This document shows positions 5,612-64,000 of a stretch of 64,000 nucleotides of DNA, piece after piece. The notes under the pieces were generated by a model. The model was not told the origin of the DNA. It worked only from the letters and a program-made list of their open reading frames with translations, and did no database searches. A program made the position numbers and the translations under genes. Within the stretch, counting starts at the first letter, position 1; every line of letters starts with the position of its first letter. Source of the DNA: Planoprotostelium fungivorum (lineage: Eukaryota; Evosea; Variosea; Cavosteliida; Cavosteliaceae); contig MDYQ01000033.1 of NCBI GenBank assembly GCA_003024175.1, positions 111,935 to 175,934 on the forward strand. Direction: 5' to 3'.

Positions 5612-8600
5612 TCAGATGACCGTCTTTGCATTAGGTCCATCAGATTGCATGGGTCTCTCAAACACGAGATTCTTCATCCTTCTATCCATCTCTTCTCTCT
5701 CTTCGTGTCCTCTCAACCTCTTCCCACACTGACAGATGGACTCCATCTGCCTCACGATGTCATTGGCGAGACCTCTAAACTTGTCCTGCTGTAGAGGTGT
5801 AGACGTGGTAGATGTGCTCGACAAGAATCTCGATAGAATGTCTTTCATCTCTTCCGTTGCCATCTGTAAAGACATCAGCCGCAGATCGGATGATGATGAT
5901 GACGTCACCTCTAATTGTTCGTAGACGAGAGGAGACGAACGAGCGATGGCGGTGACTTTAGAGGTGCAGCCGGCGATGGAAGCTGCCGACGTCGCGAGGA
6001 GTCTCTCCGATGACGGCTCGTCCGATTCCATGGTGAGTTCCATGATGTCTCTCGCATCGCGTGTCAACTCTTCGCAGAGTCGATCCATCACGTTTCTCTC
6101 TCCTTCCGTTCCAGATGTCTATCCTCATTCAGCATGACGATCGTGATGATGAAGAAGAAGGCACCTCTCTGAGTGGTATCATGGCGCCAGACGATGACGA
6201 TGTCTTGGCCAATTGGGTCAACCTCTGTCCTGCATTTTGAACCGAAGCGATAGCAGCAAGCAAATCCGGGCGTAATTGGAAGCTGCTCGGCTGAGCGTTG
6301 CCTCCTTGCAAGAGTACAGCCAAGCGGTTGATCTCGTCTACAACGCTCGAGATCTCAGCGGAAGCGATGGTGCGATCGCCGTTGTAGATGACCGAATCGA
6401 TGAGGGTAGAGGTACCCCTGATGATCTTAGATCCCCTCGCTACGACTTCGTTCTGAGATATCGTCAGTCGTTGTAGATGGTTGAGGTGAAAACTCACGGA
6501 ATTTCCGTTCGGACAGCTCTTGGCGGCTTCGAGGAAATTGGCCAGGGCGCGTTGTAGATCTGACATTGCCGAATTTAGAGAACCACGAGAGGTAGCCGTT
6601 ACAAGTGCCTCCAGTGTGACGGACAACCTTTCAGCCAGGGCTCTCATCTCTTCCTTCGAGTAGACTTTGTCGTTCGCCGTGTTAAGAGGTGCAGACGAGA
6701 GAGAGAAGCTGACGAGATAGTCTTCGATGGCTCTCTGTGTCTATAGAAGGTGAGTCCACGATGATGATCGTGATGATGTTGATGATCGTGATGATGTTGA
6801 TGATGTTGATGATGTTGATGATCGTGATGATCGTGATGATCGTGATGATGTTGATGATCGTGATGTTGATGATTGTGATGTTGATGGAACGTACCGTGAG
6901 CAGTTGTGATTCGACATTGCGTTGGTCTTGTGACAGTTGATCTAATAATTGGAGGAGAGCAGTGATGGACACGTCTACATCTCTTCCCGCCTCTCGAATG
7001 AGGTCTCCCGTGTCGACGGCGGAATTTCCGCGGAAATTCTTGATTCCCAGGAAGAGTCTGAAGACGGCGACCGCCACCGATTGTCCCGAAGATATCATGA
7101 CTGATTGTTGCGATATCTCTGCCAGCAGCGCGGCGGCTTGCTTCAGGTAGTAGGTCAAGCCCACAATCTATCACAGTCATTATTCATTCTACAACGAGCC
7201 AACTCACGTTCTGTGCCAAGTGTAGAGCCCCGCTCGATACGTTGGAATCCGTCGGAGTTCTCGACGAAATTTCCACGAGTTCTCTCTGTACGAGGCTAGA
7301 TCCATCAGCCTCGCGAATGACTTCCAATTTAGAACGCTCGAAGCTGGATCCAGCTTGGTATTCTGACACTTGAGAGATCTGTCCCATCTTGGCGTAGTAA
7401 GATGCAGTCTCAAGGTCTTCGATGCAATCTGAGATCGCTTCAGATGAACAGAGATGTCCAAGAGACTCACTCTTGATGGTGGCGATGGCGTTGTCGACGT
7501 CCGTCATGTCGACATTATTCTGGTAGATTTCCCGGGAAAATCTCTTGGATTCTCTGGAGGGTAGAGGGGGTGCCACCGATCTCGAATGGGTCATCAATCC
7601 GGGTAATTCGGGGAGAACTGATGCGCCTGGGAGGAGTCAATCTACAACGAGACGAGCTATATTTGGATCACCAGATGATTCTAAGGGTGTCAAATTGATG
7701 ACGGACTCGGGCTGCAAGACTGGGTGAGAAGCTTGTAGTAGTTGTTCGAAGGGTAGAATAGCATCCGAAGGGTAGCGAGGAATAATGGCGGGGAAAATGG
7801 AGACGCGGAAGGGCAACTCCACCACGGCCCGCTTCGCCCTGCGACATTTAGTCCCAAATATATCTTCCCGCGCAAAACTTCACCCCAAGACTTTGATGTG
7901 TACGCCGACGAAATAGCGCACGGCGATGATCTCAGCATTGTCTACCGTCGGGCAGATGTCTAACCCGGCGGGAATCATGATTGGGACTCTTCCTCTCCAA
8001 GTCATGCCGGTGGCGATGTGAGGGTTGAAGTTCAATTTACGAATGGTCTGTCTGTCCAGGCGTGTGCCGTATTGGATGACTCTCTTGATCTTGACGACAA
8101 AGTTGTGGAGGCTTCTGGATGTGAAGTTATCTACGTCGACGTATGCCATGATGGTCGTTCCACATTGGGCCATCTGATCGAGATGAGACGATTGGAAGAT
8201 GGATGGATGATGGAGAGTGATGGACGAACCTCTCGGTTGAGTTGGGCTCTTAAGACCAATGGTCTCTCGTTCTGTGCGAGAAGGAAAGACTTTGTAGCCT
8301 CTCCGACACGTGTCGATACGTTGGGGTCGATCATGTAGATGTTACCTGCACGAGTCAACACACGAGATGCCAAGTCATCCACTCACCAACTTGGAAGATT
8401 CGAACGGAGACAGTTGGACGAGATCCTTTGACTTTCAGAGAAGCCTTCAACTGATGGACGACTCGAACCTGATTTCGTGTGAGATTATGTGAGATGAAGG
8501 TACGATCTCGATGGTGAGAATGGCAATTCTGTACCTTTCCCTCTCGATAAGACATGGAAGGTGGCGTGTTCTCTGGAATGGTAATGGAGAAGGGGAGGAC

Positions 8601-8911
8601 GTATGAGCCACGGTTGAGAGTACCAGTGGGAATGAGCGTCTGGTTTGTCTTCGATATCGGTCTTCTCTTTCGAGAGTGTGTCAATCGACCTTCCAGGTTG
8701 GCATGATTGTCCACATTGAGCCCGTTGGAAGGCCACTCTGTGTGTTCGAATGCCTTGAGTCTGATACCATTAGCTATCAACGTCTAAGGAAATCATCTCA
8801 CTGTATGTCTAAGCCCAAGATGTCGATGTTCTTCTTCTGATCAAACTCGACAGTGCCCGTCACTGGCTCTCCAGGGCAATAGCATTGTTTCGATATTCTA
8901 ACCTTGAGCAT
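5612..8911 (-). CDS. Arrestin-domain protein with long alpha-helical C-terminal region
   Basis: The ATG at 8911 opens MLKVRISKQCYCPGEPVTG, the first strand of an arrestin N-domain, followed by LEGRLTHSRKRR and LPFSITIPENTPPS. The arrestin C-domain follows with MAQCGTTIMAYVDVDNFTSRS, IKRVIQYG and IPAGLDICPTVDNAEIIAVRYFVGVHIKV. After a linker with PPLPSRES the rest (about 7597-5612) is almost entirely amphipathic helix with many A/L/S (for example ALAERLSVTLEALVTA, LLAAIASVQNAGQRLTQLA). It looks like talin/vinculin-type helical bundles, but I cannot name the domain. Introns are frequent; two were joined with phase consistency (at 7860-7800, 6160-6120). One intron (6741-6894) is a microsatellite. 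Amoebae have arrestin-fold adaptors with extra domains acting in endosomal sorting; the helical tail could be an actin or membrane scaffold (inference). Confidence 0.68.
6757..6890. repeat. GATGATCGTGATGTT-type microsatellite inside an intron
   Basis: Interspersed GATGATCGT, GATGATGTT and GATGTT units fill most of the intron 6741-6894 of the arrestin-domain gene. The same GATCGTGATGATG word recurs in other introns (5880-5900, 10205-10290, 10861-10968, 27590-27640). Read on either strand it gives long artefactual open frames of I/T/N or H/D/M, which are not genes. Confidence 0.8.
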
Positions 8912-9399: not shown

Positions 9400-9795
9400 G
9401 CGGTGCGAATTGTGAATTAATCGATGTCTCTTCACTCTTGAGATGATCTTTGAGATCATCCGACTCAGTTTGTAACCCCCATTATTGCGTTGTAATATTC
9501 CAAACGAAAATCCAACAAAAGAATAAGAAATCACTCCCCTATCACGTATCGAGTCAACTTGATTCCACAAATATAGATTCAACTTAAATACAAGAATATC
9601 ACAGAACATAGAGGGGAGAAACCAGTGGACTTGGGCATATTCATTTTTCAGACACATACATCAGTTGTACATATTCGACTTAGAGCCATCAGCCTGTCAC
9701 CTATATCTTACCCTAATGGACGTAATGCCACCGCAAATCTCCCATCTACAACGTTGTAGACCAAAAACGACACCGCTCCATCTTTATCCTCTCGT
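9400..9795. other. Intergenic stretch with a perfect CTACAACGTTGTAG palindrome
   Basis: It lies between two minus-strand genes. The 14-base perfect palindrome CTACAACGTTGTAG at 9746-9759 sits about 40 bases past the stop codon of the SET/MYND gene. The half-site is the same word that recurs in introns throughout the window. No coding signal is visible. Confidence 0.5.
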
Positions 9796-11857
9796 TTATC
9801 TCCTCTCTCTTTCGCATTTGGGACAATCACATTCAAATCCGTAAGCTTGAAGGTCCGCGTTTCTATCCTCTAAAGACATCGTGTCTTCAATGTAGCTGTG
9901 CGTCATCTCTTCTCCGGGGTGGATGTCACGTGTCGTGTGGACGTGGGCGAGAAAATTGTCTTTGTATCTCACGATGGTGTTCGGCTCACACGAGTGCTAT
10001 AGACGATGAGTCGATGAGATGTCGGTGATGACAGAAGTTCACGTTCATGGTAGCGCTGACGACGAAAACTCCCATTCCTTGCATGGGGGGGAAGACGTAG
10101 GGCTGTTGTAGTGCCCTCTCGAAGAGGCTCAACGGTGCACTCTCCATCTCTTCTTCTTTTCCTCCATCTACAACGATCAGATCCGATACCACCGTTCGGT
10201 CATGTGAACATCGTGATGGTGATCGTGATGATGATGAGATCACCTTCGTCATCGCAGTGATGATCTTCGCCATCGTGATCGTGATCGTGATCATCTGCGT
10301 CCATCTCATCTTGCATGCGCATGATGTGCTCGACAGTCGGCGCCAAAACGGCCCAAATTTGACTCTTCTGTGGCTCTGCCATCTCCGGCATTTTCTGTAG
10401 AAAATCTTGAAGGGGGCTCTTTTTCTGTCATTCTACAACCCGCCACTCCGTCTCACCTGGATCTCGATGCCCTGGTTGTTCAACTCGAAGAGTCCCACCA
10501 ATAGACCAAAGAATTGCAAGTTGAAAACCGTCGAAATTTCGGGCTCTTTTCCAGCCTCTTTCAATTGACGCTGGTAGATGGGGTGTTCGATGATGTGAGG
10601 AGATAGAGCTTGCTTCAGCAACTGTAGAGACACTTCGGCCATGCCCATCAGAACTGTTCGTCTTCAGTTTTATTTGATTTTATTCTTTTTCGATTGGGAC
10701 GGACGTCACCTTGCGCGGGAACTCCTGAATCGATGCATGCGACGTCCCACCACGCTTTTTTGGGGTAAACTGCAAAGGGTAAAATGGCATCTGTGAAGTC
10801 CCCTCCGTTCGTCTCCCATCTTCCGATGATGACACAGATGGCCTGCTCGACACGATCAGTATGACGATCGTGATGAGAGACAACATGACGATCGTGATGA
10901 GAGACAACATGACGATCGTGATGAGAGACAACATGACGATCGTGATGAGAGACAACATGGCGATCGTGTGGATGATGATCGTATGGTGATGATGTCGTGA
11001 CAAGGGAGAGAGATTGTCACCTGTGCTCCCAACAAGAAAATTTCGTGATCTCTCATGGCTTGTTGTTTGAACTTGAAGAGAGGATGATTCTGACTGGTCA
11101 ATTGACCGACGCACAAGAAACGATGATGTCTCTGAAAAGCTTCTGCCCTACACGCATCGCTGCAATACATCTCTCCACATCCCTTTTCGCTCCATCAGTA
11201 TGAGAGTATTTCATCACGAGGGAGATGTAAAGACATCATCATCGATCGTGATGAATGAGATGATCACCATGGCGCATTCAAAGGTCTCCACGTTTCCCGC
11301 GCTCAGGAGGCTCTGTTGAAGATGAGTAATTTCGAGATTTCGAGGAGAATTCAAGCGAGTACGTACCACTTGAGGCGTAGGTTGGCTCTGACCCATCTGT
11401 CCCAAAACCTGAACGGATTTGAGACACGAGAGGATGAGAGAATCGACGTAGAGAGATGCATTTGAACGATGGATCTCGTAGATGCAATCAGATGTCACCT
11501 GTTGATGTCTTGCCAGCTGTGTCTCCAAAGATCCTAAGAAAGACAGACAATGACCGCACGTCCAAGCGGAAGGTCTGTTCTCCGCATGCTGCAGGGAAAC
11601 CAATGGTGCCTCTTTGATGATGACTGTTTCTGCCGGTGTCTGTCGAGTGCAAAACATTCCTTTTCCCTGATGGTTTCGTTCATTCCCTGACAGAAGAAAC
11701 AGAGATGGGAGTATGATCTTCTCACCTTGGCATCGTCAATGTATCGTACCTCTCCGGGAACGTTCTGAGCTGTGATAGCGTTGGCATAGTATGTTTGGAA
11801 TGCTTCTGATAGAGGTGCGTACTGCATGTTCCCTCTTTGCGTCTCCTCTTCCTTCAT
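9796..11857 (-). CDS. SET and MYND domain lysine methyltransferase (SMYD/ATXR2-like)
   Basis: A protein-lysine methyltransferase using S-adenosylmethionine. Minus-strand exons give a split SET domain: first GKGMFCTRQTPAETVIIKEAP, the SMYD-type start; then a zinc-binding insert with WTCGHC and, later, MYCSDACRAEAFQRHHRFLC (MYND-like Cys/His pattern); then helical sequence; and last GMGVFVVSATMNHSCEPNT, PGEEMTHSYI and a post-SET CDCPKCERE near the stop at 9796. NHSC and the Y of HSYI are the usual cofactor/catalytic positions. Introns include 11019-10840 (with a 24-bp tandem repeat) and one whose acceptor is CGTTGTAG at about 10170. The start is set at ATG 11857; an earlier in-frame region has no ATG. 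Confidence 0.8.
10861..10968. repeat. 24-bp tandem repeat, 4.5 copies, in an intron
   Basis: Perfect copies of a 24-base unit start at 10861, 10885, 10909 and 10933 (ATGACGATCGTGATGAGAG plus ACAAC), followed by a half copy with one change. It lies wholly inside an intron of the SET/MYND gene, and its length (a multiple of 3) creates a false repeated peptide frame on the minus strand. Confidence 0.9.
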
Positions 11858-12005
11858 TTTTCCGCTCCGATTTACTCGTTGTAGATTGAGGTAATTTTTC
11901 GTCCATTTCGCTCGACACACGCGACGACACAACTCCTTCAACCTTCAACATCAAAGCACCACACCACACATCCACGTCTATCTAACTCCGACATTTCTTC
12001 CACGA

Positions 12006-15994: not shown

Positions 15995-18900
15995 ATGACT
16001 TCATCGTCGCCTCACGCTCGTCTGCCGCTCATCATGTGTGTGTCCATCGGAGATCTAAGTGGTTGTTCGGAGAATTCGGAGAAACTGTGGGGTCGATTCT
16101 ACAACGGAACATCCGACGTTCAACTTCATCAGCTCTTTCCGCCCGAGTGGCGTAGCACGAGATGACATCGAAACTCACCACATCTGCTCCTCGTTCTCAT
16201 AAGAGGAGTCCATATGTATATGTCAATGGTGGGTGATTTCACACACATTATCTTTCAAGTGACGTTGAACATCATCGCCTTGTGGCCGAATAGAATACGA
16301 TTTTCCATGCATACATCGTGAAGTTGAACTTGTTCGTTGCGATTGAAAGCAGACTGACTCGATCTTCAGTTCTTCGAGCGGAGGGGTTGAGATTCGAGTC
16401 GAGTGGTGAGTCGAATGGTCGAATCAATCGAAATGTGAACTGATGGATGTCGTCCAGGAAAAGTATATTGTGATATAATTGCCAACCAGAATCGAATCGC
16501 CACATCTGCCGTGAAATCGAAGCCGAATCCAAAATGGCGAGAAGAGTTCCTCCTGTAAGTATATACAGACAACCGTCGGACAGATGCAGACATAATCTGA
16601 CATCCATCATTCCACTGTTGTGTGAAATCCTCGACACCCCCTCACACATTTCCAGTGTCATGACAGAGCCCAGTCTCTGTGTGGACATCGAGATCTACTT
16701 CATGCCGTCCAACAATGGGATACGAAAGTCACAGATCTTCCCCAGGAGAGGTACGAAGGGAAAGAACGACCGCATCATGATCGGATCGGTCTCGATCAAT
16801 CTCGGCGTCGTCCACGAAGAAGGTGCACTGGTCGAGGTGAGCTCGTGTCCATCACGATGTAGACGATATGGCATCGATCACGTCCACGATGATGGTCTCA
16901 CTCACGTCTTCTCAGGACTGGTTCGTCGTCAGGCGTTCGGCTTCACCTTATCTGACGGATCTGCCCATCGATGAATCTCTGGCAGACAAGAAAGTCAGGA
17001 GAACGAACACGAGAGATCCACCCATATCCTCTGAACCATCAGACGAAGGTGACCGATTCGATTGATTCGCATGCATTCGATCTCCTCAATCTGATCTTCA
17101 CGTGTCGATGTGTATCGATTCGGACTCGTTCGTGGAGTGCATCACGATGACTCTTCATCTTCATCTGAGGTGGAGATGTGACTGAAGAGACGACAGAGAA
17201 GATTTATCTGGGAATACAATATTTCCGGCAACCGAAACAAGACAGCAACATTCGATACAGCTTCGTGCTGGATCAGTTGGGGGAGCCGAAATACCAGAGA
17301 TTCATCCGTCTGCTGGTCAACGATAATCTCAGATTGTTATCTTCTCTCGTATCTGTTTTGGATCCATCTGATCTAGATAAGGTGAGAGAACTATTCTTTT
17401 ATTCGAATTTCTTCCTTCGCATTTGGGACGGGAATCACTGCTTCTGAATGAAAAATCCTTCTCGATTTTGACACGCGAACAGATTGCACCACCTCTCGTT
17501 CGTCTGTTTGATTTCCAAGAGAAGATCAGGTGAGAAATTCAAATATCAAACCTCCCGCCAAATTTCCTGCAGACCTCTATGGAGACATCTATTGCAGAAC
17601 GAAGTCGATTCCAGCGAGAATTCTCAAGTTCTATTCCGCAGTAATTCCATGGCCAGTAAAGTATTATCCATTTACGCAAAAATGGTCGGTCTCAACTATC
17701 TACAACGAACCATCGGCCCCGTCGTACGAGAGGTGATGGTTTTCCACGAAATTTCCGCTCACCCCGCCAGGTCATGGGCATCGGAAATCCGGAAGAATAC
17801 GAGGTGACCCGTTGTAGATCCATCCCCCCGCTGACTCGTTGTAGATGGATCCCATCAAACTGGGAGAGACGGTGACGCAGCAGAGTATGCCCGCGAGTCC
17901 GAAGGCCACTCTGAGAGGAACATCTTCCCTCTACGGGTTATCTGAATCGACGCACAGTCGATTGTCTCAGAACAGTCAGAGACTGAAGAAGGTGGCCAAC
18001 TCTTTCCTCAAGGCCATATTCGCCTCTTCCCACGAATTTCCAAAGTGAGTCGTTGTAGATCGACGGAGAAATTTAATGAGAATTTCAGTCCGTTACGTGC
18101 CATCTGCTCGGATCTGTTCGAGATCGTTTCACCGAAATTTCCCAATTTCGTCAGCCAAGCCCTCGCTTCCTTCGTGTCCTTACGTTTCGTCAATCCATCC
18201 ATCGTTGCCCCCGAGTCTCACCAGATCATCGAATGTGAGTCAACGGTTTTTTTAGGCACGCCGTGCGGCCGAATTTCACTGAAATTTCGAAAACTTGTGA
18301 ACTGACGGGGGACAGCTGTACCTTCCATGGAGCACAGGAGAGTGTTGGTCATCGCGGCTAAAGTGGTGCAGAACGTATTCAACGCGACGCCTTTCACTTC
18401 GAATAAGGAAGATTACATGCAGATCCTCAATTCATTCGTCCACGAGAATATTCCCCTTGCCAAGGAGTTTCTGTCGAAGGTTTCGGTGGGTGTTCTCTTT
18501 CTCTCGATGTCTATACGTCATATCTGCTGTCACTTCATTTATCCATCACATCAATATCATCATGATGATCACCTGTCTCATCGCACATGATCATCCATGA
18601 CATGACGATCGATGATCATCGAGACCCATCATGACACTTCTGTAGATGGACTACCCCTACTCCTTACCCACACCCACCGTCACACAACGGTTGAACCAGA
18701 GAAATTACGACGACCATTCGAAGTATCCCATGACCATCACGCGTAACGACGGAAGAGTCATCGCATCACAGATGGCCAAATCAGATATCTTGGCGGACGT
18801 ATCGAACATCCACACGTGCATCACTCGATATGTTGAGAAAATCGGAAAATTAGCCAAAGAAGACGAGTGGCTGCAGGTGTCGTCTCGTCTCTATCCTCCT

Positions 18901-21900
18901 TCTCTCTTCAATCCCTTCTATTTCTCTCGTGATCGATTTCGAGTTTGTAAGGAGGATTGACTCGTTGTAGATACCGATGGATCAATTGCAACACAGTGTG
19001 AAGGAGATGAATAATCGATCGAGTAAAATGGACTTACCCTAGTGAGAACCCTTCCGTACATGGTGATGTCTGACGTCATCGATAGTGCGGACTACAACGC
19101 TGTATTGGAGGAGAAGGGTGCCATTCAGATCGAAAATCATTCTGACTTTGATGTTCACTGGAGACAGCAGCAACAGGTGAAATTAATCGAAAAAAGATCG
19201 TTTCGAAAAAATTTAAATGTTGATTGGGAAATTTAAATCTTGATTGGAAAAATATTGAAAAATATAGTTGCACGAAGCGGTATACAGCGATGATGATCCG
19301 GACATTCTGAACGATCTACAATGGGACAAAGACACGCACAGAAATCCCGTCGACATTTCCATGGACCTCGTACGGGGCATGCTGGACCTCTACATGAAGC
19401 ACGAGGTGATCTACATCTTTGTAGATGGTAAAATTCACGTCGACAGGGTAAATGGGCTACCATTCGGAAGACAGACGAATTTCTCCTGGTCAAATCGGCC
19501 ACGTCAGAACTGAAGACGGTCGACTTTTCCGAGAATTCTTCTTACCCCGACCTCATGGCATTCTGGATCAACCTCTACAACTGTCTCATCATACACATCC
19601 ACGTGAGTTTTCCTTTTACGTACGTAACGTGAAATCTCGTCAGATTCTCCTCGGTCCTCCCACCAACAAATTGTTCCGCAAGATGTTTTTCACCGATTTC
19701 TCTTACATCGTCGGTCCTTATCGTTTCTCATTGGAAGACATCCGCGACGGTATCCTTCGAGGTGAAGATCATCCATCTACAACGTTGTAGACGAACCCTC
19801 CCAGGCAACCCCAAGATGAAGTTCATGCGACATCGAACCATCCGTAGCGATGACCCACGACGTTGTTTGGCCATCAGCGCACCGTTGGATCCAAGGGTCC
19901 ATTTTGCCCTGTCTGTTCTCAACCAAGCTTCACCCATAGTGAGGGTGTACAGCCCGGCCACCCTGCAGGAACAATTGCATTTGGCGGGAGAAGGTGAGGG
20001 GGTATGGCGGGTTGTAGATTGACGTGAAAAGTTTTCCTGGGAAAACATTTGACCATCAATTTCAGCGAGAGGCCCGGTGCGGTACCGGAAGCATCCGAGA
20101 TTATTCCGGTGGTGAGTATCAGAATTTTCTTAGAATTTTCTCGGATTTTTTTGAGAAATGTCACCTCACCACACCTTCAGATCACCGTACCCTCCCTCAT
20201 CGAACGCTTTTCCTCGGATTTCGGTCTGTTCCCGGGAAACAAGAAGAGTCAGCAGACCCTCCTGATCTTCCTCTTCCAATTTCTCAACACGAAGAAGAGA
20301 TTGGATCTATTATTAGCCATCGAAGCAAAGGAATTCCAGCTGAATTTCACCAAATCAACGTGGGAGGTCATGAACGTCAGACACTCCATTCGAGTGACCC
20401 ACAAGAACTTTACGAACAACATCCACGACCTCTTAACGCTGATGAGATGCGTGTGTTCGGATCTGCTGCAGGTCAAATCGGTAGATGAGCTCGTCAATGT
20501 GGGCAAGACGATACACACCATCGCAGTAGTGAGTACTCCTCCGTTTCATTTATTTCCTCCCGTTGTAGACTCATAATACGTCTCGTTGTAGACGACACAG
20601 ATAGATCGTTGTAGACGGAGTATCACCTCGTTGTAGATGACTGAAATATAGACAGAAAATCAGAGAGAAGAAGGATCTATTCAGACAGAGGAGGAGACTG
20701 GGAGCAGCAACACGAACGATCATCGGTGCTGCAGAAGCCCCGCAGAAGATCTCCCTCTACGCCGCTCGCGCCAGAAATTTCCTGGAATTCGTCTCCCTTT
20801 CCCCGGAACAGATGGTCAATATTCCCAGGGACAAGCAGGGAATTTTCCTGGAAACCATGCGGAAGATCTTCCTGGAAGCAGAAGACGTAGTCTCAAATTT
20901 GTCCCAATTCATCATGGAAGACGGCTACGCCGACAACGCCGACACCGTTGTTACCCTCAACATCATCTGCAAGGTAAATTTCTCGGAAATTTCTGATGAC
21001 GTCATCTGACGTCATCATCAGGACTTGAGAAATTTAGACGAACACCTGCACGAGATGAACCAGGGCGCCCCTTCTCCACACAATGACCACAGGAAGAACA
21101 TGTTCTTGTTGATTCAGGCTATCGCATCTGAAACGGCAGACGTGACGAATATCTTGCGAATGATCGACAAGGAGGTGAGTTGTAGATGGAAGATTCCTTG
21201 AATGATCGGAGACAGTTGGACACGTACCAATTCATTGAGCCCACCGTGGAGGACGTACTCAAGTGAGAAATTTCATTCTTCATCGAGAAGTGAATAGGAG
21301 ACATCGTAAACAATAAAATAGAATAAATGACGATGAATAGAGTCTGGGACAGTAAGAACAAGAAGGAAAACAAGACGGTGGAGAGGAGTGAGAGTAGAGA
21401 AGAGAGGAGGGCACACATGCAGGCAGTCTTAGACAGACAGAACTTACTCATCAACATCGCCGTCATCCTTCGCTACGTCAGAGAACAATTAGACATCGAC
21501 ATCAAGAAAACGGACAAGCTTCTACCATTCGAATCAAAGACTATCATGCTCACCGTGAGACCTTTTATTTTATTTTATTTCTTCTTCATGCTGATCGTAC
21601 TTGACTCATCGATGTCATGAACATCATATAGTAATGGTTCATAGATAATACAATGATATACGTGTTGGTTCGTTGTAGATGGATGAGATTGACCGTTGTA
21701 GATCCCCCATTCCGACGCCAGGCTGGCCGATCTGAAGGCAGCCGTGCGGCACTCGATCAAAGTGTTATACACCTCTATACAGAACTACTTGGAACAAGTT
21801 GCAGCAGAGAAGTCACCCAAGCAGATCTTATTGCTGGCCAACAAGAGTGAGACACATCATGTGATGGAGATGGTGATGTGACTTCTCTGCAGTTCGAAAC

Positions 21901-22131
21901 ATACGGAATGCATTGAGACAGATCAAAGGAAAGAAGTTGAAGATGATGAGTCACATGGCGGTGATGGAGGGTGCGGAAGCGAGGTTAACGGTCCGAATGG
22001 TCAATGCATCCATGAACAATATCCAATTGATGGGTGATTAGACGTCTAATCATCGAGAGATGTCTGATGAGATGACAGAGGAGCTCGCGTTAGAGGACCT
22101 GCAGATGTTGGAAAGGATGTTGTTAGATTAA
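15995..22131 (+). CDS. C2-RasGAP-DUF547 multidomain protein
   Basis: A Ras GTPase-activating protein with an unusual second half. Many short exons give, in order: a C2 domain (LIMCVSIGDLSG, SPYVYVNV, KPNPKWREEFLL, later GSVSINLGVV and DWFVV); a RasGAP domain with LFRSNSMASK (arginine-finger loop), YLQRTIGPVV, and the FLR-type motif SLRFVNPSIVAPE; a linker; a DUF547 domain with AFWINLYNCLIIH, LDPRVHFAL and RVYSPATLQEQL; then a long helical tail ending in EDLQMLERMLLD. Splice joins were checked by frame at about 19037 (MDLP|YADYN), 20100 and 22035. The ATG at 15995 is the first in frame before the C2 strands. The RasGAP residues needed for catalysis look intact. DUF547 has no settled function. 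Introns are rich in CGTTGTAG words (four copies at 20561-20636). Confidence 0.78.
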
Positions 22132-29196: not shown

Positions 29197-30127
29197 CTAG
29201 TAAGCGTACTTCCACCCGGCCCAGAATCCTCCAACAACACCAGCTGCACGATCATCAGACATCATCGACTTCCATCTAGATCATCATCACCTTGAAGAGG
29301 AAGAGAGTATGTCAGCATGGCCGACGCCTTCTTCGTCGTCTTGTTTCTGTTCTCTTTCGACAACATCAACTTGCTCTTGTCTTCGACTCTGCCCCAATTG
29401 ATCGTGATGTAGCCCATGTAGGCCAGCATCTGCAAGAAGACGAATTCTCCTCCCACGAAGAATAAAACCAATTTAAATGATTTCTTGGCGGCGAAGCCGG
29501 CGCAGAAGCCAAGGATACCACCCAGGGTGAGGTTACCAAAGATCTCTGTACCAGTGAGCGTTGTAGCTCGTCGCATTCGAATGGAACGCACCGTAGATCC
29601 ATCCCGTGCTCTCTGGTACGGCGGGGTCTTCCAAGGGGCTGGTCTATAGACAGTCAGAGATGGACACTTTCGCATGCTGCCCTCACCATCACCACCTCTT
29701 CATTTGCAGGTTCTAATCGAGTGTCAGATGTTTCATGTGCGAGATGCATGGAGCGTTACCTTCTGAAGCGTCTTCCTCTGCGGCGGCGAGAACATCTCCG
29801 CCGATCAGTTGAGAACCAGCCAAGGCGGCAGCTCCCAGGACGAGCCAGTGATAACGAGATTCTTTGACACGATCTGCTTTCAAATCGATGGTGGCGAAGT
29901 CTGTCTTCTGAGTGACTGAAGGTGATTTAAGTTGAGATGGATGGAGATTCTTCACGATATGCACCTGGAGAAAATGTCTGAAAGGTTCGAACGTTCTGAA
30001 ACGAAGTCTTTGTGGAGTTGAAATTGTTGCGGGTGAAGGTAGCAGTGGGGCGCAGGACATTAGTCTGACGGAGTAGGTTGGTTCTCTGAGAGAGCTGATG
30101 GAGGGAACGGAAAGCGAGCGTGGACAT
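29197..30127 (-). CDS. FUN14-domain mitochondrial membrane protein (FUNDC1-like)
   Basis: The ATG at 30127 gives an Arg/Ser/Asn-rich, acid-free mitochondrial presequence (MSTLAFRSLHQLSQRTNLLR). Next come a TM-like HWLVLGAAALAGSQLIGG, an acidic linker, then the FUN14 domain: EIFGNLTLGGILGFCAGF, FVGGEFVFLQMLAYMGYI and NWGRVE. The last exon supplies AGVVGGFWAGWKYAY before the stop at 29199-29197, matching the second FUN14 glycine-rich helix. Joins at 29590 (WIY|EIFG, 45-nt intron holding CTACAACG), 29270 (LPLQ|AGVV) and 29930 keep frame. FUNDC1 is a mitophagy receptor of the outer membrane in animals; I see no clear LC3-interacting motif, so that role is not shown here. Confidence 0.8.
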
Positions 30128-40963: not shown

Positions 40964-43231
40964 ATGCCTCCTCTGGGATACGCACTCACCTTCATCATCT
41001 TCTTCGTATTCTTATTGATTGCCATCATCGTCGGAGCTCTAGGTCAGTTCACATTTTTTAGAATACATGATTTCATCCATCAGTGACGCTGTCTTCAACA
41101 TATCTTCATCCGCATATCGATCCGAATACCCATTTATCGTCTTTCTATTACGAATCGAACATTCTGACGTTGATTTGCAGGACCGAACGTCTATAATTCC
41201 ATCGATCTGAACGCTTGGGGTGCGGCTTGCAGAGGGAAAGATTTTTTCGACGAATTGGATTGTGAAGGTGTCGATATGTCTGATGTGAGGGATCTGATTT
41301 CGAATCTCTTCTCACCCTCTCCGTGTTTTCCCATCTTTCAAGATCAGCATCACACCCTCTGATGTGATGTATCGAACGATCTCAATCATGCAAGTGATAC
41401 CAAGATCGATTGACACGATGAACAGTCTTCAGCCGTATGGACCGGAGTCGTCTCCAACCTCGACCGACTCAATCAAGAACTCAGTCTCTACGCTCGTCTC
41501 ACCAATGGAAGATACCAAGATGCAGGTACATCATTATCACGATGCACGATGCATCATCCGTTACCCCTCCTCTAAATCGTCTCTCAGGTCTGACCAAGAC
41601 GATCACTATATCGTTGACCGTCAGTGGTAAGAACAACGGAGACACAAATTGGACTACCATAGTCAACGCTGACACTCACGAGAGGACAGTCGTGTGTTCC
41701 GAGGTGAAATTTCGCGGAGATCTCCGCGACGATTCGAAGAAAAACGTGAGGTGACGCATCACAGGGATCTTACATCTGCGAACCTCTTGGCTTGGCCACA
41801 ATGGTTTTCATCGGATTTTCACAGTACGAATTCAACGTCACCATGCTGACCCCCACTCCAAATCTCAGGGACGTCTACTTCTCCGTGAGTCACCGTTTTC
41901 CCGCCAAAATTTCCCGCCATCTTTTTTCCCGCCAAAATTGATCCCCACAGTTTTCCTTTGTCAATCGAGACTACACGTTGTTCGAGTTGTGGTTCAGATA
42001 TGTCTTTCTCTTCTTCACCGTGGGAGCTGTCATCGCTTACTCTGTCATGTTACGTAGACACAATTGGGACTCTTGGACCCTCGAACAGAAGTGGGCCCTC
42101 GTGCTGCTGTACGCTCTCATGGGTTACAACAGTGAGTTTTCGTCGAAATCTTGTATTACGTACGTACTCATACGTACAGATCCGATCTACCCCATCGAAA
42201 TCTTGGTACCAGGATCTGCACCGGTTTTTATCAATCGTCTCTTATATGCAACTTTCCTCGTTCTCATCTTTTTATTCTGGCTCATCATCTTCGATGGTGT
42301 ACGTCAGGTGAGCATCTACAGCGTTGTAGATGGACTCGCGATGACGTCATCACAGGAGACGTCGGACCAATCGTTTGTGACATTTTACCTGCCCAAGGTG
42401 ATTCTTCTCGGAATCTTCTGGATCTGTGGTATCGCAGTGTTCGTGTGGAACCAGTGAGTTTGCATTGTAGATGGACGACACTTACGCCTTTCAGTTTCCA
42501 TCTGTCAGAAAATCCCGCCTTCACGACGACACAAGATCTGTACGGATTCAAAGTGAGCATCTACAATCCATTCTCTTGATTTCATTTCATCGTCGATTCG
42601 ACACCACCCACATGGATGCATCTACTGTATCGCGAGGAGAACGATGTTGAAAAAAAACAGGCATTTCTGGGTATCGAAATCGTGATCATGATTATCTACA
42701 CACTTTGGATGGTCATTGTAGTGGCCAGATCTGTATCAGACGCTCAGATCCTTCCTTATCTCAGCGCCAGGTGACATCGATGACGTGGATTCAGACACAC
42801 TGACATCACACGTAGAATCCGATTCTTCTTGGGTTTCACCATCTCGATCATCATCGCACTCATCATAGCTATCGTGTTTGGTTTCGCGTTCTCACAAAAT
42901 AATGGTGAGTCGCAGGTCTTCGTCACAGCAGCGTGCATCGTGATCGAGATCATCACGTCGTGATCACACATCACAATCATCGTCACACTATCCCATCATG
43001 ATATAAAAAACATCACTGCACCGCGATCGCAAGATCGCATCGTGTTGGACGACATCATCTGATGACCTTTCAGCTGCCGAATTCTTAGTTTACATCGCCC
43101 TTTTGAACTTATACATCTACGTCCTCGCCTTCGTTTACCTTCCAAATTCACCACCGGACCACTCGGACTCTGATGCGTCCAGCGCCGACCGCATAGGAAT
43201 GGTTCGTTTGGAAGAAGACGATAATATATAA
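40964..43231 (+). CDS. TMEM181/Wntless-like multi-pass membrane protein
   Basis: From ATG 40964: a first helix (YALTFIIFFVFLLIAIIVGA), a luminal region with GPNVYNSIDLNAWG and later TITISLTVSGKNNGDTNW and GSYICEPLGLATMV (beta-rich, GOLD-like), then a run of helices: FELWFRYVFLFFTVGAVIAY, WALVLLYALMGYN, NPIYPIEILVPGSAPVF, LYATFLVLIFLFWLIIFDG, YLPKVILLGIFWICGIAVF, IEIVIMIIYTLWMVIVVARS, FFLGFTISIIIALIIAIVFG and FLVYIALLNLYIYVLAFVYL. The NPxxPxxxLV...FLFWL...DG block is typical of TMEM181 and the Wntless superfamily of cargo receptors. The C-terminus is acidic/Ser-rich. Introns carry CGTTGTAG and TACGTACGTA words. Cargo or ligand is unknown. Confidence 0.75.
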
Positions 43232-44744: not shown

Positions 44745-47700
44745 TCACACAGACATGTATTCCATTCGCGTTCCATTCTCATCGTCATCGTATCTCGCCA
44801 AGCTCGTGTCCACTTCTTCATCCGAGTCCTGCTCTTCAAAGATGTAGTCCGCCTCGTCTATACTTCCATCGCTGTCCGTGTCTTTGATTTCGCTCTTGTG
44901 TGAAACCAATCTGAGCCTCTCCATCTGATCCACGGTGACTCCTCCTTGTTCTTCGTTGAGGTAACTCAAATCGGGCGCTCTAATCATCAAATCAGATCGG
45001 ATCATATCACATTCGAATCATCAGATCCTCACGTCATTCGAATGGTCTTTCGACGATGAGGGTTATTGTAAGTCCTCTTTCTATGCATGTAGACGGCAAA
45101 CTGATGGTCTTCATCGGGTGGCGTCAGAGCGGGATGATGGAAGAGCTGGGTGAACCTCTGGGTGTCCGCCCTGTTTGCAGAGGTCCCCGTGTTGGTTGGT
45201 TTCGTCTGGTCGAGGGGATAGAAGTGAAAAGGCTTCGCAAACCGCTTCTGATTGTAGATCATGTAGATGATGGACAAGACCACCAGGCCGATGATGGACA
45301 GACCGGCCGAGAAATCCTGGAGGGGGGTGAGGAGGGGGGAGTGGCAGGTTGTAGATCGATCTTACCTTGAGGAGGAAGACACCGATCATGACCAATTGGT
45401 AGATGACTAAAGCGTATCCCACGCGATTGATCACGATGAGGGTGACTTTACCTCCTGTGTTTCATTAGAATGAAACGTCTATAAGATGTGACGTCACCCT
45501 GGTAACGCGGCATGACCACGTAAATCATATTGTACTTGGCTGAAAACCAGCTGACCCAAAAATAGGACAGGGCGAAGGGTACCACGTACGGTGCCTGTCC
45601 CAATCAGTTCCCGCCAAAATTTCCCTCGAATTTTCTCACTATGGTACTGTACACGACGGCGATGAGCAGTACGAACAACTGACGAGTGTACAATATTCCA
45701 TATAGAAAGGGTGCAGGTGCTTCCGCTTGCTTCTTCTCTTCCTCCGTCACGCAGTAGAACAACCTCTTCAACCCGTACAGTAGAAATTCATCGAATCTTC
45801 CCAGCCAGAAGATGGCATAGCCGGCTGATGTCGTGAGCATCTACAACGATCACGTGATGTGACACACCCCAACCCTGGAGGACGATGTAGTTGGTGAAAT
45901 AGGCCGCTTGTTTCGATATGGCGCTGGCTAATCTCGTGGCAGCCAGCGTTGGATTCGACGCGACATCTCCAAACAAAACGAAGGCGGGGGCTGTTTCGAT
46001 TGAAAATCGGAGAAAATCGGATTTTCGAACGGCTCGTTGTAGATGGAAATTCACCTGCGAAGACGTAACCTAAGAAGGATACGAGGAACAAGAAGAGCCA
46101 GTAAAATTTGACCAACTGCCTCTCCGTGGAAGAGTACAGACCGTAACCAGAGTAAGTGAGTACGTCTGTCGACACGTCAGAAACGTCGACGAGGACATCA
46201 CACTCACACTGTAGGAGGTAAGGCAAGATGACCATGAAGAAAGTGTAAGCCAAGGTGGGCAGAGTTGACGATGCAAACTCGTACAAGTATTGATTCGTAT
46301 TGATGAAATCCATCACGCCAGACAACCACTCTAACTTGCTCAAGTTCTCTACCCTATCATGAGCTCCTTACGTATGACATACAGTGAGACATCTCACCGA
46401 TGCGAATCCAGGCTGATATCACGGCGATTGGAATGAACCACGTGACAAAGATGACAGCGAGGGCGACCCAAACGGCCACTCGCCTCAGATATTTCTGCCA
46501 ATCGGGTGCAGATAGGTACTCCCAACAGATGTCCTCTGTTTTTCGCGTGAGATTTCAGTGAAATCTCACGACTCACTCGGGTGAGGCGCTTTGTAGACGC
46601 GACTGATGAACGGACTGTACGACACGAGCATCTACAACGAGTCAATCGCGTGAGGTTACGTGACTTGTACCTGCTGAGCGGCGAGGGCCTGACCGATGGT
46701 GGAGAAACAGACGAAGGCCTTGTTTGTATATCTCTTCTTCACTTCTTCTCTCTTCTGAAGTTCTCTGATGCGTTCATCTATTTGCGTGAGCATCCTGTCG
46801 TAGTAGTCCATGCCTCGGACCTGTTCGCGTCAGACGGGAGATCTCGCGTGGATTTCGCGGGAATTTCTCACCCTCTGACCCCACAGACTCTTCTGATGGC
46901 CTGGATCTCTCATTGGATAAGGAAAGAAATAAAATGGAAAAATCCCTCCTATGGTGGTGAAGCCGCGAGACGAATCTCCCACGTCAGACCAATGGGCGAA
47001 TCTGATCACGTGATCAGGTGAAATGTCGACGACATTTCGTACCTCTTGTACAGACCCACGAGTTTGTCTCGTTTGTTCTGCAGCACGGACAGTTGGGGTA
47101 AGCAAGGAACTACCATGGTATTGTGCACGCTCTCTTTACCGAACATCTTGGCGAAATATCTGATGACGTCATTCGAGTGAAATTTCGATGGAATTTCACT
47201 TTCTCGTACGCTTGGAGGAATAGGCAGAGTGGTAAGGTATGTCTGTCACCAGGACTGACCTCTGTCTTACACCTTCCGGTCTGTTCTGTGCAGTATCCAA
47301 TCTGATGTACTGTGCACGTCACGCGTTGTAGATGGAAGATTCCACGAAAAATTCGTCAAGATGATAGAGAATGAATATGGTTTTGATTCTCTCACTGCAT
47401 CGAATAGGCGATGGCTGAGATTGTACAAGAGAAGAGAGAAGATGAAGACAGAGATGAGGTGGGCATACAACACGTTATCATCTGGACATCGATCAGATCG
47501 ATCGACACGATCGTCGTGAAGGGATCGACGATCGCGATGACCGAACTCACTGTCGCGGATGTTAGCGATGCTGTACACGTCTAAGCCACGGACAGATCTC
47601 GTGTCCGATTTGTCCAGGTCTTTGTTCTGTGACAATTCAGTGACTTACGTGATGAGGTAATCACCGGGCCCAGAGAGTTGATGGGAGTCAATATGGTGTT

Positions 47701-50404: not shown

Positions 50405-51535
50405 ATGACGACTCAACGCAACAACCAGAGCAAGATTCTCGCTTCCGTCGTCGTTCCTACTTATAAGGAGGTGGCCAACATCAGACCTCTCGTCACCCGT
50501 CTGGTCAACAAATTAGAGAACTCACCATTCGGAACCATCAACCGCAACAACATCGAAATCATCTTTGTCGATGATAACTCGAAAGATGGCTCGAAAGAGA
50601 GGGTACATCTGTGATCATCTATTCCCCATTTCTCCTGCTCACAGTCGTCGCAGGCACAAGAATTAAAGGATGAGGGATATCCAGTCGTCTTCATAGAGAG
50701 AACCACTGAGAGAGGATTATCCTCCGCTGTTCTTCGTGGCTTCAATGATGCTAAGGGAGATCTACTTCTCTGTATGGATGCCGATCTCCAAGTACGTTTC
50801 ACTCATCTTGCCTGCATCATATATATTCTAATTGTATTTCCAATCTGATTTTCGGTCGCAGCACCCACCCGAGAAGGCGCCCGAATTATTAGAAGCACTG
50901 GTCAAGAACAAAGACGCAGATTTCGTCTTAGGAACTCGTTATGGAGAAGGAGTCGAGATCGATCCCAACTGGCCCATGCACCGTGTCATCATCTCCAAGG
51001 TGAACGGTCCATCTCGATTTTCACGACACGATGATCTGATTGAGAAACAGGTCGCCCGCTCATTATCCAGACCTCTCACTCCTCTGTCTGATCCCATGTC
51101 TGGATTTTTCGGCCTTCGAAAATCCACCGTGAGTGTCCAATATATTCTCATCCCATCACGTTCTTCTCGCTGCACATCTGATCATCATCAGTTAGAGCAA
51201 GGAAAGAAGATCAACCCTATCGGTTTCAAAATCGCCCTGGAGCTCTACGTCAAGTGTGGCTGCAAGAACTCCACCGAGGTGAGCACTCCTAAAGCGCTCA
51301 AGATAGAACGAATGCCGCGTTGTAGATGAACTGACCCCCACAGGTTCCCTTCTCATTTGGTGTAAGAGAAGCTGGAGAGAGCAAATTATCTGGAAAAGTC
51401 ATCGTCAAATACATCGAGCAGTTAGTGGAATTGTACAGCTACACATACGGACAAGCCTTCATCCCAGCAGTTCTCATCACCGTCATCTTCTTTGGGATCT
51501 TTGTCCTCATGATTCTCTACCGTCTGTTTCAATAA
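50405..51535 (+). CDS. Dolichol-phosphate mannosyltransferase (DPM1/GT2) with C-terminal anchor
   Basis: An ER enzyme making Dol-P-Man from GDP-mannose for N-glycans, GPI and O-mannosylation. Motifs: ASVVVPTYKEVANIRPLV, IIFVDDNSKDGSKE, ERTTERGLSSAVLRGF, LLCMDADLQ | HPPE (metal-binding DAD), DFVLGTRYGEG, ARSLSRPLTPLSDPMSGFFG, NPIGFKIALELYVKC and VPFSFGVREAGESKL. A C-terminal helix (FIPAVLITVIFFGIFVLMIL) follows, as in yeast Dpm1 and unlike soluble human DPM1. Five introns; one (about 51276-51344) carries CGTTGTAGATG. Complete. Confidence 0.92.
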
Positions 51536-60512: not shown

Positions 60513-60613
60513 AGAGATTTCATCTTCCTCATTTATTTGGGCGGATGTTTCGTTGGTTTCAGATACTTGGATAGAATCTAAACTCGATCAGTTTGTCTCC
60601 TGAGAGATTAATC

Positions 60614-62483: not shown

Positions 62484-64000
62484 ATGATGGTCAGATTTGC
62501 CATCGCGGTTGGAACATATCTCATCTCATTTGTCTTCTGGCTACTGGAATGGTACTACATGCTCATCTTTGCCACCTCTATCCTCCTCTCTCAGGAAGAC
62601 ATACGTAAAGCTCATCAGTCGACACCCAGAGAGAAACCATCCTACTGGCGACCACACGAAGAGCAGCGAACTCGTCTCGGACTGAGAGCTGAGCCGTGCC
62701 TGGGTGTCCAATCATTCTGTCAGGAGTTCAGGACTCGGATACAGTGGGCAAAGAATGCGGTTTCCTCCGAAGAGAAGATCTTTGAGAAGATCCTGGCATT
62801 CATCGATCAACTCGGAAATGAAACGGCTGAACATGGTGATCGACATTAATGGTAATGGAGAGTCAATCTGACGGAAAGACAGGTATCCCAGAAGTGGGAG
62901 GTCTCAGCAGCTTCTTACGCTTGCTGATGGACAACATTAAAAATGTAGAGGATGTGACGATGAAGGCACAGGCGCTGGACAACCTCCGTGCACTCTCCAC
63001 GCTCTTTCCTTACATGCTGGGTTTGGTACGCTTCAAGCAAGAGACAAAGACACAGCTCATTTCCAAACTCAGCGACCTGCGGGTGACCCACCACGAGCAC
63101 GGAGAATTGCAAGGACACCAAGTCATCCAATCCGCCAACGACTCACGTCTATATCCGTTCTGGTATAATGTACGTATCATCATGATCACGATGCGACATC
63201 ATTGACCGCATGTAGGCCCAGACGAATTCGAGGAAGCTTCTGATCCTGTTGAACACGACATTTGCTTCTTTCGGCAGCACATACAAGACACCCCACCTCA
63301 TCCGTAAGAGCGTCAAATCTCTCTACACCTTTGCCCACTGTCTACTCGTGAGTCCCTCTCACCTTCTACTTCTCATCCCCACAGTACTCGCATCGCAGCT
63401 CGCAGATGTCCCGCGCGATCTGCGACGACAAACTCTTCGATGTGAACATGATCCAGTACATCTGGTGTCTGCCAGATAACATCATTCCAATGAAATGGAT
63501 GCAGAGATACACTCTTCCATCCGTCGCCATCAGTCAGCAGTTTGACATCCCATCGAGAGCCAACGGACCTCTAAAGGGTGATTGTGATGTGTCATGATGT
63601 GATCTGATGTCGCAGGAGCGAACGTGAAGGCGAGATTGATCTCTTCCAAGGCCATCCCTGGCTTCGTCTATCCCTTTCAGAATCTACAGAGGGAAGTGTC
63701 CGGGAGAGAGATGCCACTCATCATGCACATGCATGGCGGTGGTTTCATCAGTGGAAGCACCAACATGCACGGTGAGTTGTAGATTGACCGTGCGAAAATT
63801 TACGCGAAAATTCAGAGAATTATTTGAGAGAGTGGGCCATCATCACGGGTTACCCCATCGTGTCCATCGACTACAGGTATTTTTCTTGGATTTTCCTCCG
63901 AATTTTCTCTGAAATTTCGACAGTCTGGCACCTCAGCAGAAGTACCCTACGCAGCTCAACGAATGCTTCGAAGCCTACCGGGTGCGTTGACCGTTGACCG
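62484..64000 (+). CDS. Hormone-sensitive lipase-like esterase, 3' end outside window
   Basis: From ATG 62484: an N-terminal membrane segment (FAIAVGTYLISFVFWLLEWY), then helical HSL N-domain-like sequence (LSSFLRLLMDNIKNVED, ALDNLRALSTLFPYMLGLV, FDVNMIQYIWCLPDN), then the alpha/beta hydrolase: PLIMHMHGGGFISGSTNMH (HGGG oxyanion motif), LREWAIITGYPIVSIDYS, LAPQQKYPTQLNECFEAYR. The HGGGF...DYSLAP...P....EC..AY pattern is diagnostic of the HSL family (lipid-droplet acylglycerol and sterol ester hydrolysis). The catalytic GDSAG lies beyond 64000. An intron near 62837-62883 joins TAEH|GIPEVGG in frame. The intron at 63772 begins GTGAGTTGTAGATTG. Confidence 0.85.

What the first reader, a model, noticed from the sequence alone, without database searches (positions are those of the whole stretch)
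7186..63790. A CTACAACG/CGTTGTAG word recurs in introns of unrelated genes
The 8-mer CGTTGTAG or its complement CTACAACG, often extended to CGTTGTAGAT, appears in introns or gene borders at, among others, 7186, 7640, 10169, 17810, 17833, 18052, 18963, 19777-19790, 20561, 20584, 20607, 20629, 21671, 21695, 29560, 35507, 39655, 42321, 45842, 46035, 46630, 47324, 51311. By chance an 8-mer is expected about twice in 64 kb on both strands. Twice it forms the full palindrome CTACAACGTTGTAG (9746-9759, 19777-19790). In some introns it is right after the donor, in others it supplies the acceptor TAG. It could be a splicing enhancer, a dispersed introner-like remnant, or an RNA-binding site; UGUAGAU is close to a Pumilio core.
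Basis: partly seen in the sequence, partly recalled or inferred. Interest (0 to 1): 0.85.

Follow-up and report, generated by a model that had tools for sequence, protein, structure and literature searches.

The report
Exact DNA word in gene bodies
A single ten-letter DNA word is repeated thousands of times in this genome, mostly inside genes well past their start and in either direction, which points to an unknown DNA-binding factor working on gene bodies rather than to a splicing signal.

Summary
CGTTGTAG occurs 37 times in the window (0.9 expected) and 14,371 times in the 36.9 Mb genome (2,122 for the reversed word). By my own gene models (about 1,040 introns) it exceeds permuted words about 56-fold in introns, 11-fold in exons and 8-fold between genes.

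Three features move it away from splicing, RNA-binding and introner ideas. (1) It is strand-symmetric over gene bodies: outside palindromes and acceptor sites 53 copies are sense and 54 antisense, with similar flanks (about TGRCTCGTTGTAGATGGAC), although introns alone are sense-biased. (2) It is almost invariant, and pairs as CTACA-N4-TGTAG at that spacing. (3) It is depleted at gene starts: 7 of 401 introns within 750 bp of the start codon carry it, 69 of 484 beyond 1 kb (p = 1.6e-12); a further 30 kb gave 0 of 37 and 13 of 63.

Best reading: the site of an unidentified, dimer-capable DNA-binding factor acting on gene bodies beyond the promoter-proximal zone. Its TAG often serves as a 3' splice site, probably incidentally. 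The factor and its function are not shown.

The parts
231..238 (+). word, antisense to gene, in intron 152-275
1881..1888 (+). word, between predicted genes
6338..6345 (-). word, sense, in an exon of gene 5612-8911(-)
6380..6387 (+). word, antisense, in an exon of gene 5612-8911(-)
6469..6476 (+). word, antisense, in intron 6453-6497
6550..6557 (+). word, antisense, in an exon of gene 5612-8911(-)
7189..7196 (-). word, sense, in intron 7168-7207
7642..7649 (-). word, sense, in intron 7627-7671
9746..9759 (.). palindrome CTACAACGTTGTAG (two words), about 40 bp past the stop codon of gene 9796-11857(-)
10168..10175 (-). word, sense, forming the predicted 3' end (TAG acceptor) of intron 10168-10243
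11877..11884 (+). word, antisense, just upstream of the start codon of gene 9796-11857(-)
16099..16106 (-). word, upstream of gene 16226-22131(+)
16226..22131 (+). predicted RasGAP-domain gene, 28 exons, the word-richest gene of the window (12 copies in introns, 2 in exons)
17700..17707 (-). word, antisense, in exon
17810..17817 (+). word, sense, just after the donor of intron 17804-17844
17837..17844 (+). word, sense, at the predicted 3' end of intron 17804-17844
18051..18058 (+). word, sense, in intron 18045-18088, which interrupts the RasGAP domain
18963..18970 (+). word, sense, at the predicted 3' end of intron 18877-18970
19092..19099 (-). word, antisense, in exon
19411..19424 (.). variant palindrome CTACATCTTTGTAG (CTACA-N4-TGTAG) in intron 19406-19446
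19777..19790 (.). palindrome CTACAACGTTGTAG in intron 19762-19804
20561..20636 (+). four words at 20561, 20584, 20607, 20629 (spacing 23, 23, 22 bp) in intron 20529-20655
21671..21678 (+). word, sense, in intron 21555-21701
21694..21701 (+). word, sense, at the predicted 3' end of intron 21555-21701, 23 bp after the previous one
29559..29566 (+). word, antisense, in intron 29546-29591
33734..33741 (-). word, antisense, in an exon of gene 30877-36067(+)
35505..35512 (+). word, sense, at the predicted 3' end of intron 35473-35512
39655..39662 (-). word, sense, in intron 39631-39671
42316..42329 (.). palindrome variant CTACAGCGTTGTAG (the full word is 42322-42329) in intron 42308-42355
45841..45848 (-). 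word, sense, in intron 45825-45867
46035..46042 (+). word, antisense, in intron 45991-46054
46632..46639 (-). word, sense, in intron 46615-46659
47324..47331 (+). word, antisense, in intron 47310-47395
51318..51325 (+). word, sense, in intron 51279-51343

Best explanation
The word is the recognition site of one sequence-specific, dimer-capable DNA-binding factor of this eukaryote, acting on the DNA of transcribed gene bodies and not on the RNA. The full site is about 17 bp (TGRCTCGTTGTAGATGGAC). The strict half-site is TGTAGAT. A second half-site in inverted orientation exactly 4 bp away gives the palindromic form. Sites are maintained in the body of genes, rising from near zero at the start codon to their highest density about 1.5-2 kb in. 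They lie mostly in introns because these are free to vary, and in exons where coding allows. Where a sense copy falls just after a branch point, its TAG becomes the 3' splice site. Shown (on predicted genes): over-representation, sharpness, exact inverted spacing, overall strand symmetry, presence in introns and exons, depletion at gene starts. Inferred: a protein reader, and its role. The role I think most likely is marking or silencing the gene body, for example against spurious internal initiation or in elongation-linked chromatin, because such sites would be harmful at a promoter and useful far from one.
For: Highest z-score of all 8-mers seen 12 or more times in 314 kb (188 against 5.5 expected); 14,371 against 2,122 genome-wide. 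Near invariance: 111 intron copies, while the 15 single-base neighbours at the last five positions total 7. CTACA-N4-TGTAG 34 times against 0-4 at every other gap of 0-20; genome-wide 3,172 matches against 254 for gaps 0-24 (a full palindrome counts on both strands), 88 of the 100 listed at gap 4. Strand symmetry: 53 sense, 54 antisense, palindromes and acceptor copies left out. Flank profiles of five classes correlate 0.63-0.82, against at most 0.48 for random genic positions in the five pairings tried, 500 draws each. Exons beyond 750 bp: CTACAACG 18 against 4.0 and CGTTGTAG 6 against 0.23, reached in 0 of 300 within-gene synonymous shuffles. Gene starts: introns 7/401 against 69/484; without the word-rich loci 5/330 against 40/396; with the word masked in the gene finder 7/404 against 67/485; a further 30 kb 0/37 against 13/63. 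Direct pairs prefer 22-23 bp (31 of 100 listed).
Against: In introns alone single copies are sense-biased: 36 internal sense against 17 antisense (p = 0.013), 57 against 17 with acceptor copies (p = 3e-6); a pure DNA site does not predict this. Late introns close to another gene's start are not depleted (4/36 within 600 bp, 7/36 at 600-1000, 8/64 at 1000-1500, 37/260 beyond; introns near locus ends dropped), so the rule follows the gene's own start, not nearness to any promoter. Intergenic density is 8 times lower than in introns, odd for a general DNA factor, though still 8-fold above permuted words. In the further 30 kb one exonic copy lies 171 bp from a start and two copies are intergenic. 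No protein was identified. Gene models are mine, without RNA data.
Confidence: 0.45

Rival explanations
1. An RNA-level element of pre-mRNA: CGUUGUAGAU is bound by a splicing or processing factor, or the CTACA-N4-TGTAG form acts as a tetraloop hairpin, in introns far from the 5' end.
For: Intron enrichment; acceptor use in 22 of 75 sense intron copies; sense bias of single intron copies, 57 to 17; palindrome introns fold better than shuffles (mean z -1.29, n=23, against -0.36 for 150 sampled introns without the word); the rule follows distance from the gene's own start.
Against: CTACAACG is itself far above chance in introns (36 against 0.3 expected) with similar flanks and is the commoner form in exons; single-copy introns do not fold unusually (z -0.29, n=48); no difference in donor score or branch-point frequency.
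Confidence: 0.2
2. A word kept by molecular drive or by a DNA-modifying or repair enzyme, in the manner of bacterial HIP1 or uptake sequences, and tolerated mainly away from promoters.
For: Extreme count and sharpness with few one-base variants, overall strand symmetry and inverted pairs, some excess also between genes (16 against 2.0).
Against: A drive should fill intergenic DNA as well as introns; intergenic density is 8 times lower. It does not predict a roughly 20-fold rise along the gene.
Confidence: 0.15
3. Remnants of introner elements that seeded late introns.
For: Introns dominate; 126 cross-gene pairs of word-bearing introns match at E 0.001 or better, mostly over 17-35 nt, the longest 49 nt at 78%.
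Against: On average conservation falls to 0.3 bit or less outside about -5 to +13, and the palindrome with its flanks already explains about 20 nt; pairs of introns without the word match as well (186 pairs); no preferred distance between inverted copies except N4; exons carry it, in all three frames for CTACAACG.
Confidence: 0.07
4. An artefact of the gene finder or of repeats in the assembly.
For: No transcripts; some copies lie in tandem or coding repeats.
Against: Training with the word masked gives the same result; an unmodelled branch point appears 9-13 nt before intron ends; two spliced models tested give full RasGAP and RSN1_7TM domains; whole-genome counts need no models.
Confidence: 0.03

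Closest known systems
Intron-mediated enhancement motif TTNGATYTG of Arabidopsis (IMEter; PMC6760150, abstract and passages read)
   Same: A dispersed short word in transcribed introns, with a boundary near 1 kb from the start; reported to work independently of splicing (title)
   Different: [quoted passage not shown] this word is scarce there and enriched beyond. Sequence unrelated.
HIP1 of cyanobacteria and bacterial DNA uptake sequences (PMC4390886, PMC2346458; search listing and abstract start only)
   Same: One exact word repeated far above chance across a genome
   Different: Eukaryotic; concentrated in introns; scarce at gene starts and sparser between genes; no uptake or methyltransferase link tested
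Introner elements (PMC9860276, one passage read)
   Same: A sequence shared by many introns of unrelated genes
   Different: On average only about 18 bp shared, also in exons, no terminal inverted repeats seen; target site duplications not searched for
Eukaryotic transcription-factor sites such as CRE (TGACGTCA) and G-box (CACGTG) (names recalled)
   Same: Palindrome with a fixed half-site spacing
   Different: Near-zero tolerance in the core, scarce at gene starts, spread along gene bodies
H3K36me3-linked suppression of spurious initiation in gene bodies (PMC7670215; search listing and abstract start only)
   Same: Acts in gene bodies, away from the promoter
   Different: Known pathways there are read from histone marks; no recognition word known to me (recalled)

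Membership tests
Introner elements | Introns share homologous sequence over much of their length | tested here: not met
   Information is 0.3 bit or less per column outside about -5..+13 in 33 sense intron copies; but 126 cross-gene word-bearing pairs match, up to 49 nt
Introner elements | Confined to introns | tested here: not met
   Exonic copies exceed synonymous shuffles
Introner elements | Terminal inverted repeats (some families) | tested here: not met
   No excess of inverted pairs within 120 bp other than the N4 palindrome
Introner elements | Target site duplications (some families) | not tested
   Not searched for
Pumilio/PUF site UGUANAUA (recalled) | Any base at position 5 and A at position 8 | tested here: not met
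   Position 5 is an invariant G (60 against 0, 0, 0); position 8 is G in 57% and A in 7% of 76 sense intron copies
Pumilio/PUF site UGUANAUA (recalled) | RNA strand specificity | tested here: not met
   53 sense, 54 antisense over introns and exons
Intronic splicing enhancer | Works on the sense RNA, so one orientation | tested here: inconclusive
   Single intron copies are sense-biased 57 to 17, but antisense copies are also far above chance with similar flanks
Intronic splicing enhancer | Compensates weak splice sites | tested here: inconclusive
   No donor or branch-point difference; acceptor score lower (0.50 against 0.96, p = 0.003), as TAG use would give
Intron-mediated enhancement signal | Enriched in promoter-proximal introns | tested here: not met
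   First introns 1 of 129, sixth and later 69 of 504
Dimeric DNA-binding protein site | Fixed-spacing inverted half-sites and orientation independence | tested here: met
   CTACA-N4-TGTAG 34 against 0-4 at other gaps, 88 of 100 listed; 53 sense and 54 antisense, with a sense bias inside introns
Dimeric DNA-binding protein site | A protein that binds it | not testable with these tools
   Needs binding experiments
HIP1-like or uptake-like genomic word | Genome-wide excess of one exact word with few near-variants | tested here: met
HIP1-like or uptake-like genomic word | Tied to a methyltransferase or to DNA uptake | not testable with these tools
   No modification or uptake data

The most novel reading that the evidence does not exclude
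This eukaryote marks the bodies of its genes in DNA sequence itself: a dedicated factor reads an exact, strand-symmetric 17-bp word kept in introns and exons, scarce in the first several hundred bases of genes, and with it at least one companion word (GAAATTTC, perhaps also TGACGTCA and TCACGTGA), so that 'inside a gene, past the promoter zone' is written in a small DNA vocabulary.
Probability: 0.25. Interest if true: 0.9.

Novelty: new variant of a known kind. Interest (0 to 1): 0.72.

Why it matters
Cells must tell promoters from gene interiors; the gene-body marks I know of are laid down by transcription on histones. A near-invariant DNA word that obeys a similar boundary would be a sequence-encoded gene-body signal, and an easy one to test because about 14,000 copies exist, many in very short introns. 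It also warns that a word enriched in introns, even one that supplies acceptors, need not be a splicing signal.

Tried and rejected
MITE-like terminal inverted repeats: no preferred distance between opposite copies other than the N4 palindrome. Gene-to-gene clustering: it looked strong by eye (12 intron copies in gene 16226-22131, none in the 23 introns of gene 56080-60603), and word density in introns and exons of a gene correlates (Spearman 0.52, n=103). But shuffling word-bearing introns among genes gave only a weak excess (21.4 against a mean of 18.9 and a maximum of 24.0 in 500), and none in the loci not chosen for the word (10.9 against 10.4). A multinomial test gave p = 0.005 for all loci and 0.07 without the chosen ones, and differences between loci p = 0.009. 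I did not separate this from the distance rule acting in long genes. Long-range pairing of opposite copies in one gene: 131 same-orientation and 112 opposite pairs against an expected half. Exclusion around any promoter: not seen. Introns differing in length or donor strength: no. General palindrome excess in late introns: 228 against 125 in shuffles, of which GAAATTTC, TGACGTCA, TCACGTGA and CAACGTTG make 98. Allele comparison: one near-identical contig pair (L004/L019) has CGTTGTAG at L004:8429, an acceptor, where L019 has CATTGTAG; too little to measure constraint. L019 was left in the counts; without it introns are 7 of 392 early and 69 of 472 late. Control words in the exon shuffles: GATGTTGC 4 against 1.2 (early) and 0 against 1.8 (late), GCAACATC 3 against 1.7 and 4 against 2.1, CATCTACA 8 against 3.4 and 10 against 4.0, so a small general excess exists. 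Organism: a protosteloid amoeba was my guess from memory; nothing here proves it, and the Protostelium passages read concern minor introns only. Literature: 192 open papers hold the palindrome or one of three 10-mers; the 30 listed hold none of the palindrome and by title none is about an intron or gene-body motif. Searches for distal-intron or gene-body words listed nothing equivalent by title and abstract start (10 of 20, 10 of 895 and 12 of 20 papers shown).


Full report
What was checked. CGTTGTAG and its complement occur 37 times in the window, against a mean of 0.90 and a maximum of 3 in 100 dinucleotide shuffles. In the whole assembly (36.86 Mb, 471 contigs) there are 14,371 copies, against 2,122 of the word read backwards. 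I then worked on 314 kb: the window, the first 10 kb of 20 contigs taken without regard to the word (L001-L020), and five 10-kb stretches that I picked because they are word-rich (L021-L025). There it has the highest z-score against a second-order Markov expectation of all 8-mers seen 12 or more times: 188 against 5.5.

Gene models. It settled on 1,042 introns, mean length 57 nt, donor mostly GTGAG and acceptor mostly CAG. Two things make the models credible. A branch-point word yTrAy that was never modelled peaks 9-13 nt before intron ends. And the two spliced products that I tested give a full RasGAP domain (E 2.8e-38) and a complete RSN1_7TM domain (E 1.4e-52), with an ungapped stretch of the neurofibromin alignment running through the junction of the word-bearing intron 18045-18088.

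Where the word sits. With the word masked: 108 copies in 59.1 kb of introns, 64 in 182.7 kb of exons, 16 in 72.2 kb between genes; 200 permutations of its letters average 1.9, 5.6 and 2.0, with maxima 23, 31 and 11. All three compartments are enriched, introns by far the most. With the word visible to the gene finder, 22 of 75 sense intron copies end exactly at the intron's 3' end, making CGTTGTAG the commonest intron ending in the sample (9 of 68 with the word masked), and none ends 1-8 nt before it. That gap is what a scanning spliceosome would impose: a TAG just past the branch point becomes the acceptor. The complement CTACAACG is commonest 4-16 nt after the donor.

The word is sharp and comes in pairs. 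Among intron copies the 15 one-base neighbours at the last five positions total 7, against 111 perfect copies. CTACA and TGTAG face each other at a gap of exactly 4 in 34 cases (27 in introns), and 0-4 times at any other gap from 0 to 20. Genome-wide, CTACA N{0,24} TGTAGAT has 3,172 matches against 254 for the control (a full palindrome counts on both strands); 88 of the 100 listed have gap 4, with a centre that is usually ACGT but can be many others. Direct repeats 12-42 bp apart number 356 against 11. Of 100 listed, 16 are 22 bp and 15 are 23 bp apart, 11 are 24 and 8 are 21; most have differing sequence between the copies, a few are true tandem arrays, and some spaced by multiples of three look like coding repeats.

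It is strand-symmetric overall. Leaving out palindromes and acceptor copies, 53 copies in genes are sense and 54 antisense: 36 and 17 in introns, 17 and 37 in exons. The flanks are similar in five classes (sense internal, acceptor, antisense intron, sense exon, antisense exon), giving about TGRCTCGTTGTAGATGGAC, with profile correlations of 0.63-0.82. Random genic positions oriented in the same way give means near 0 and at most 0.48 in 500 draws for each of five pairings. A one-stranded RNA signal would not show this. The sense bias inside introns (p = 0.013 without acceptor copies) is a result against a purely DNA reading; the exon bias the other way is what codon constraints favour, since shuffles also give more CTACAACG.

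It is in exons too. In 111 complete predicted coding sequences, within-gene synonymous shuffles give 4.0 CTACAACG and 0.23 CGTTGTAG beyond 750 bp from the start codon; 18 and 6 are found, reached in 0 of 300 shuffles. Within 750 bp, 5 and 2 are found against 2.9 and 0.25 (reached in 29 and 8 of 300). CTACAACG uses all three reading frames (6, 5 and 12 copies) and CGTTGTAG two, the third being a stop, encoding IYNE, DLQR, TTS or VVD, so no single protein motif explains them. Control words show a small excess too (given under tried and rejected).

It avoids gene starts. Introns 1 to 5 carry it in 1/129, 1/119, 4/107, 6/94 and 12/85 cases, later ones in 69/504. By distance from the predicted start codon: 7 of 401 introns within 750 bp, 69 of 484 beyond 1 kb, p = 1.6e-12. 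In the window alone 1/89 against 18/120; in L001-L020 4/241 against 22/276; in the word-rich loci 2/71 against 29/88; with word-masked models 7/404 against 67/485. The density over introns plus exons is 0.07 per kb at 0-200 bp, 0.3-0.6 at 400-1000, 1.4-1.5 at 1.6-2 kb, and then scatters between 0.3 and 1.4: a ramp, not a step. Within genes of 2-3.5 kb the same rise is seen, so gene length alone does not explain it; in genes over 3.5 kb it is 0/43 below 800 bp and falls again past 3 kb (7/95). I found this rule in the data and then tested it on 30 kb not used for training: 0 of 37 early introns, 13 of 63 late ones, p = 0.0017; one exonic copy there lies 171 bp from a start. Close to the stop codon there is also a dip (1 of 44 late introns within 250 bp). 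Nearness to a neighbour's start does not matter (4/36, 7/36, 8/64, 37/260).

Companions. Among the words that best separate late from early introns are this one, GAAATTTC, TGACGTCA and CACGTG. In the further 30 kb they are in 1, 2 and 1 early against 5, 14 and 4 late introns (GAAATTT or its complement, TGACGTCA, CACGTGA or its complement). GAAATTTC also shows the late-exon excess (13 against 2.4); TGACGTCA and TCACGTGA show no late preference in exons. So at least two words share the rule.

Reading. A DNA-level site for an unidentified dimer-capable factor in gene bodies fits most of this. That it restrains spurious internal initiation or marks elongation-linked chromatin is inference. RNA-level, molecular-drive and introner readings are weighed among the rivals. 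Plant intron-enhancer motifs are the mirror image: such introns have no effect more than about 1 kb downstream of the start (PMC6760150, abstract and passages). The organism is not established here.

Noticed in passing
L001-L025 and window, late introns and exons: GAAATTTC is depleted in introns within 750 bp of the start codon, enriched beyond, and exceeds synonymous shuffles in late exons (13 against 2.4); TGACGTCA and TCACGTGA share the intron pattern only.
   Followed up: partly
L004:4245-10000 and L019:2879-8590: Two contigs 98-99% identical with the same gene structures: retained alleles or a recent duplication; a 142-nt intron in L004 is 102 nt in L019.
   Followed up: partly
window 51982-53778 and 56247-58074, also 54263-55532 and 59113-60371: Large diverged duplication (81-84% identity) of neighbouring genes; the ORF at 53126-53884 has a guanylate cyclase domain.
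   Followed up: no
window 24363-24932 and 24934-25494: Head-to-tail duplication, 93% identical, each copy with a predicted 342-nt single-exon gene.
   Followed up: no
G000:C8:38995-39104: Seven copies of the word in a 17-bp tandem array with identical spacers.
   Followed up: no
L001-L025 and window, place not looked up: TTTGGCGGGAAA (E2F-like, name recalled) and a telomere-like CCCTAAA repeat are among the over-represented words.
   Followed up: no
early introns, L001-L025 and window: Introns within 750 bp of the start codon have a stronger C over G excess (C 0.269, G 0.171) than those beyond 1 kb (0.238, 0.195), and CATC-type words are enriched in them.
   Followed up: no
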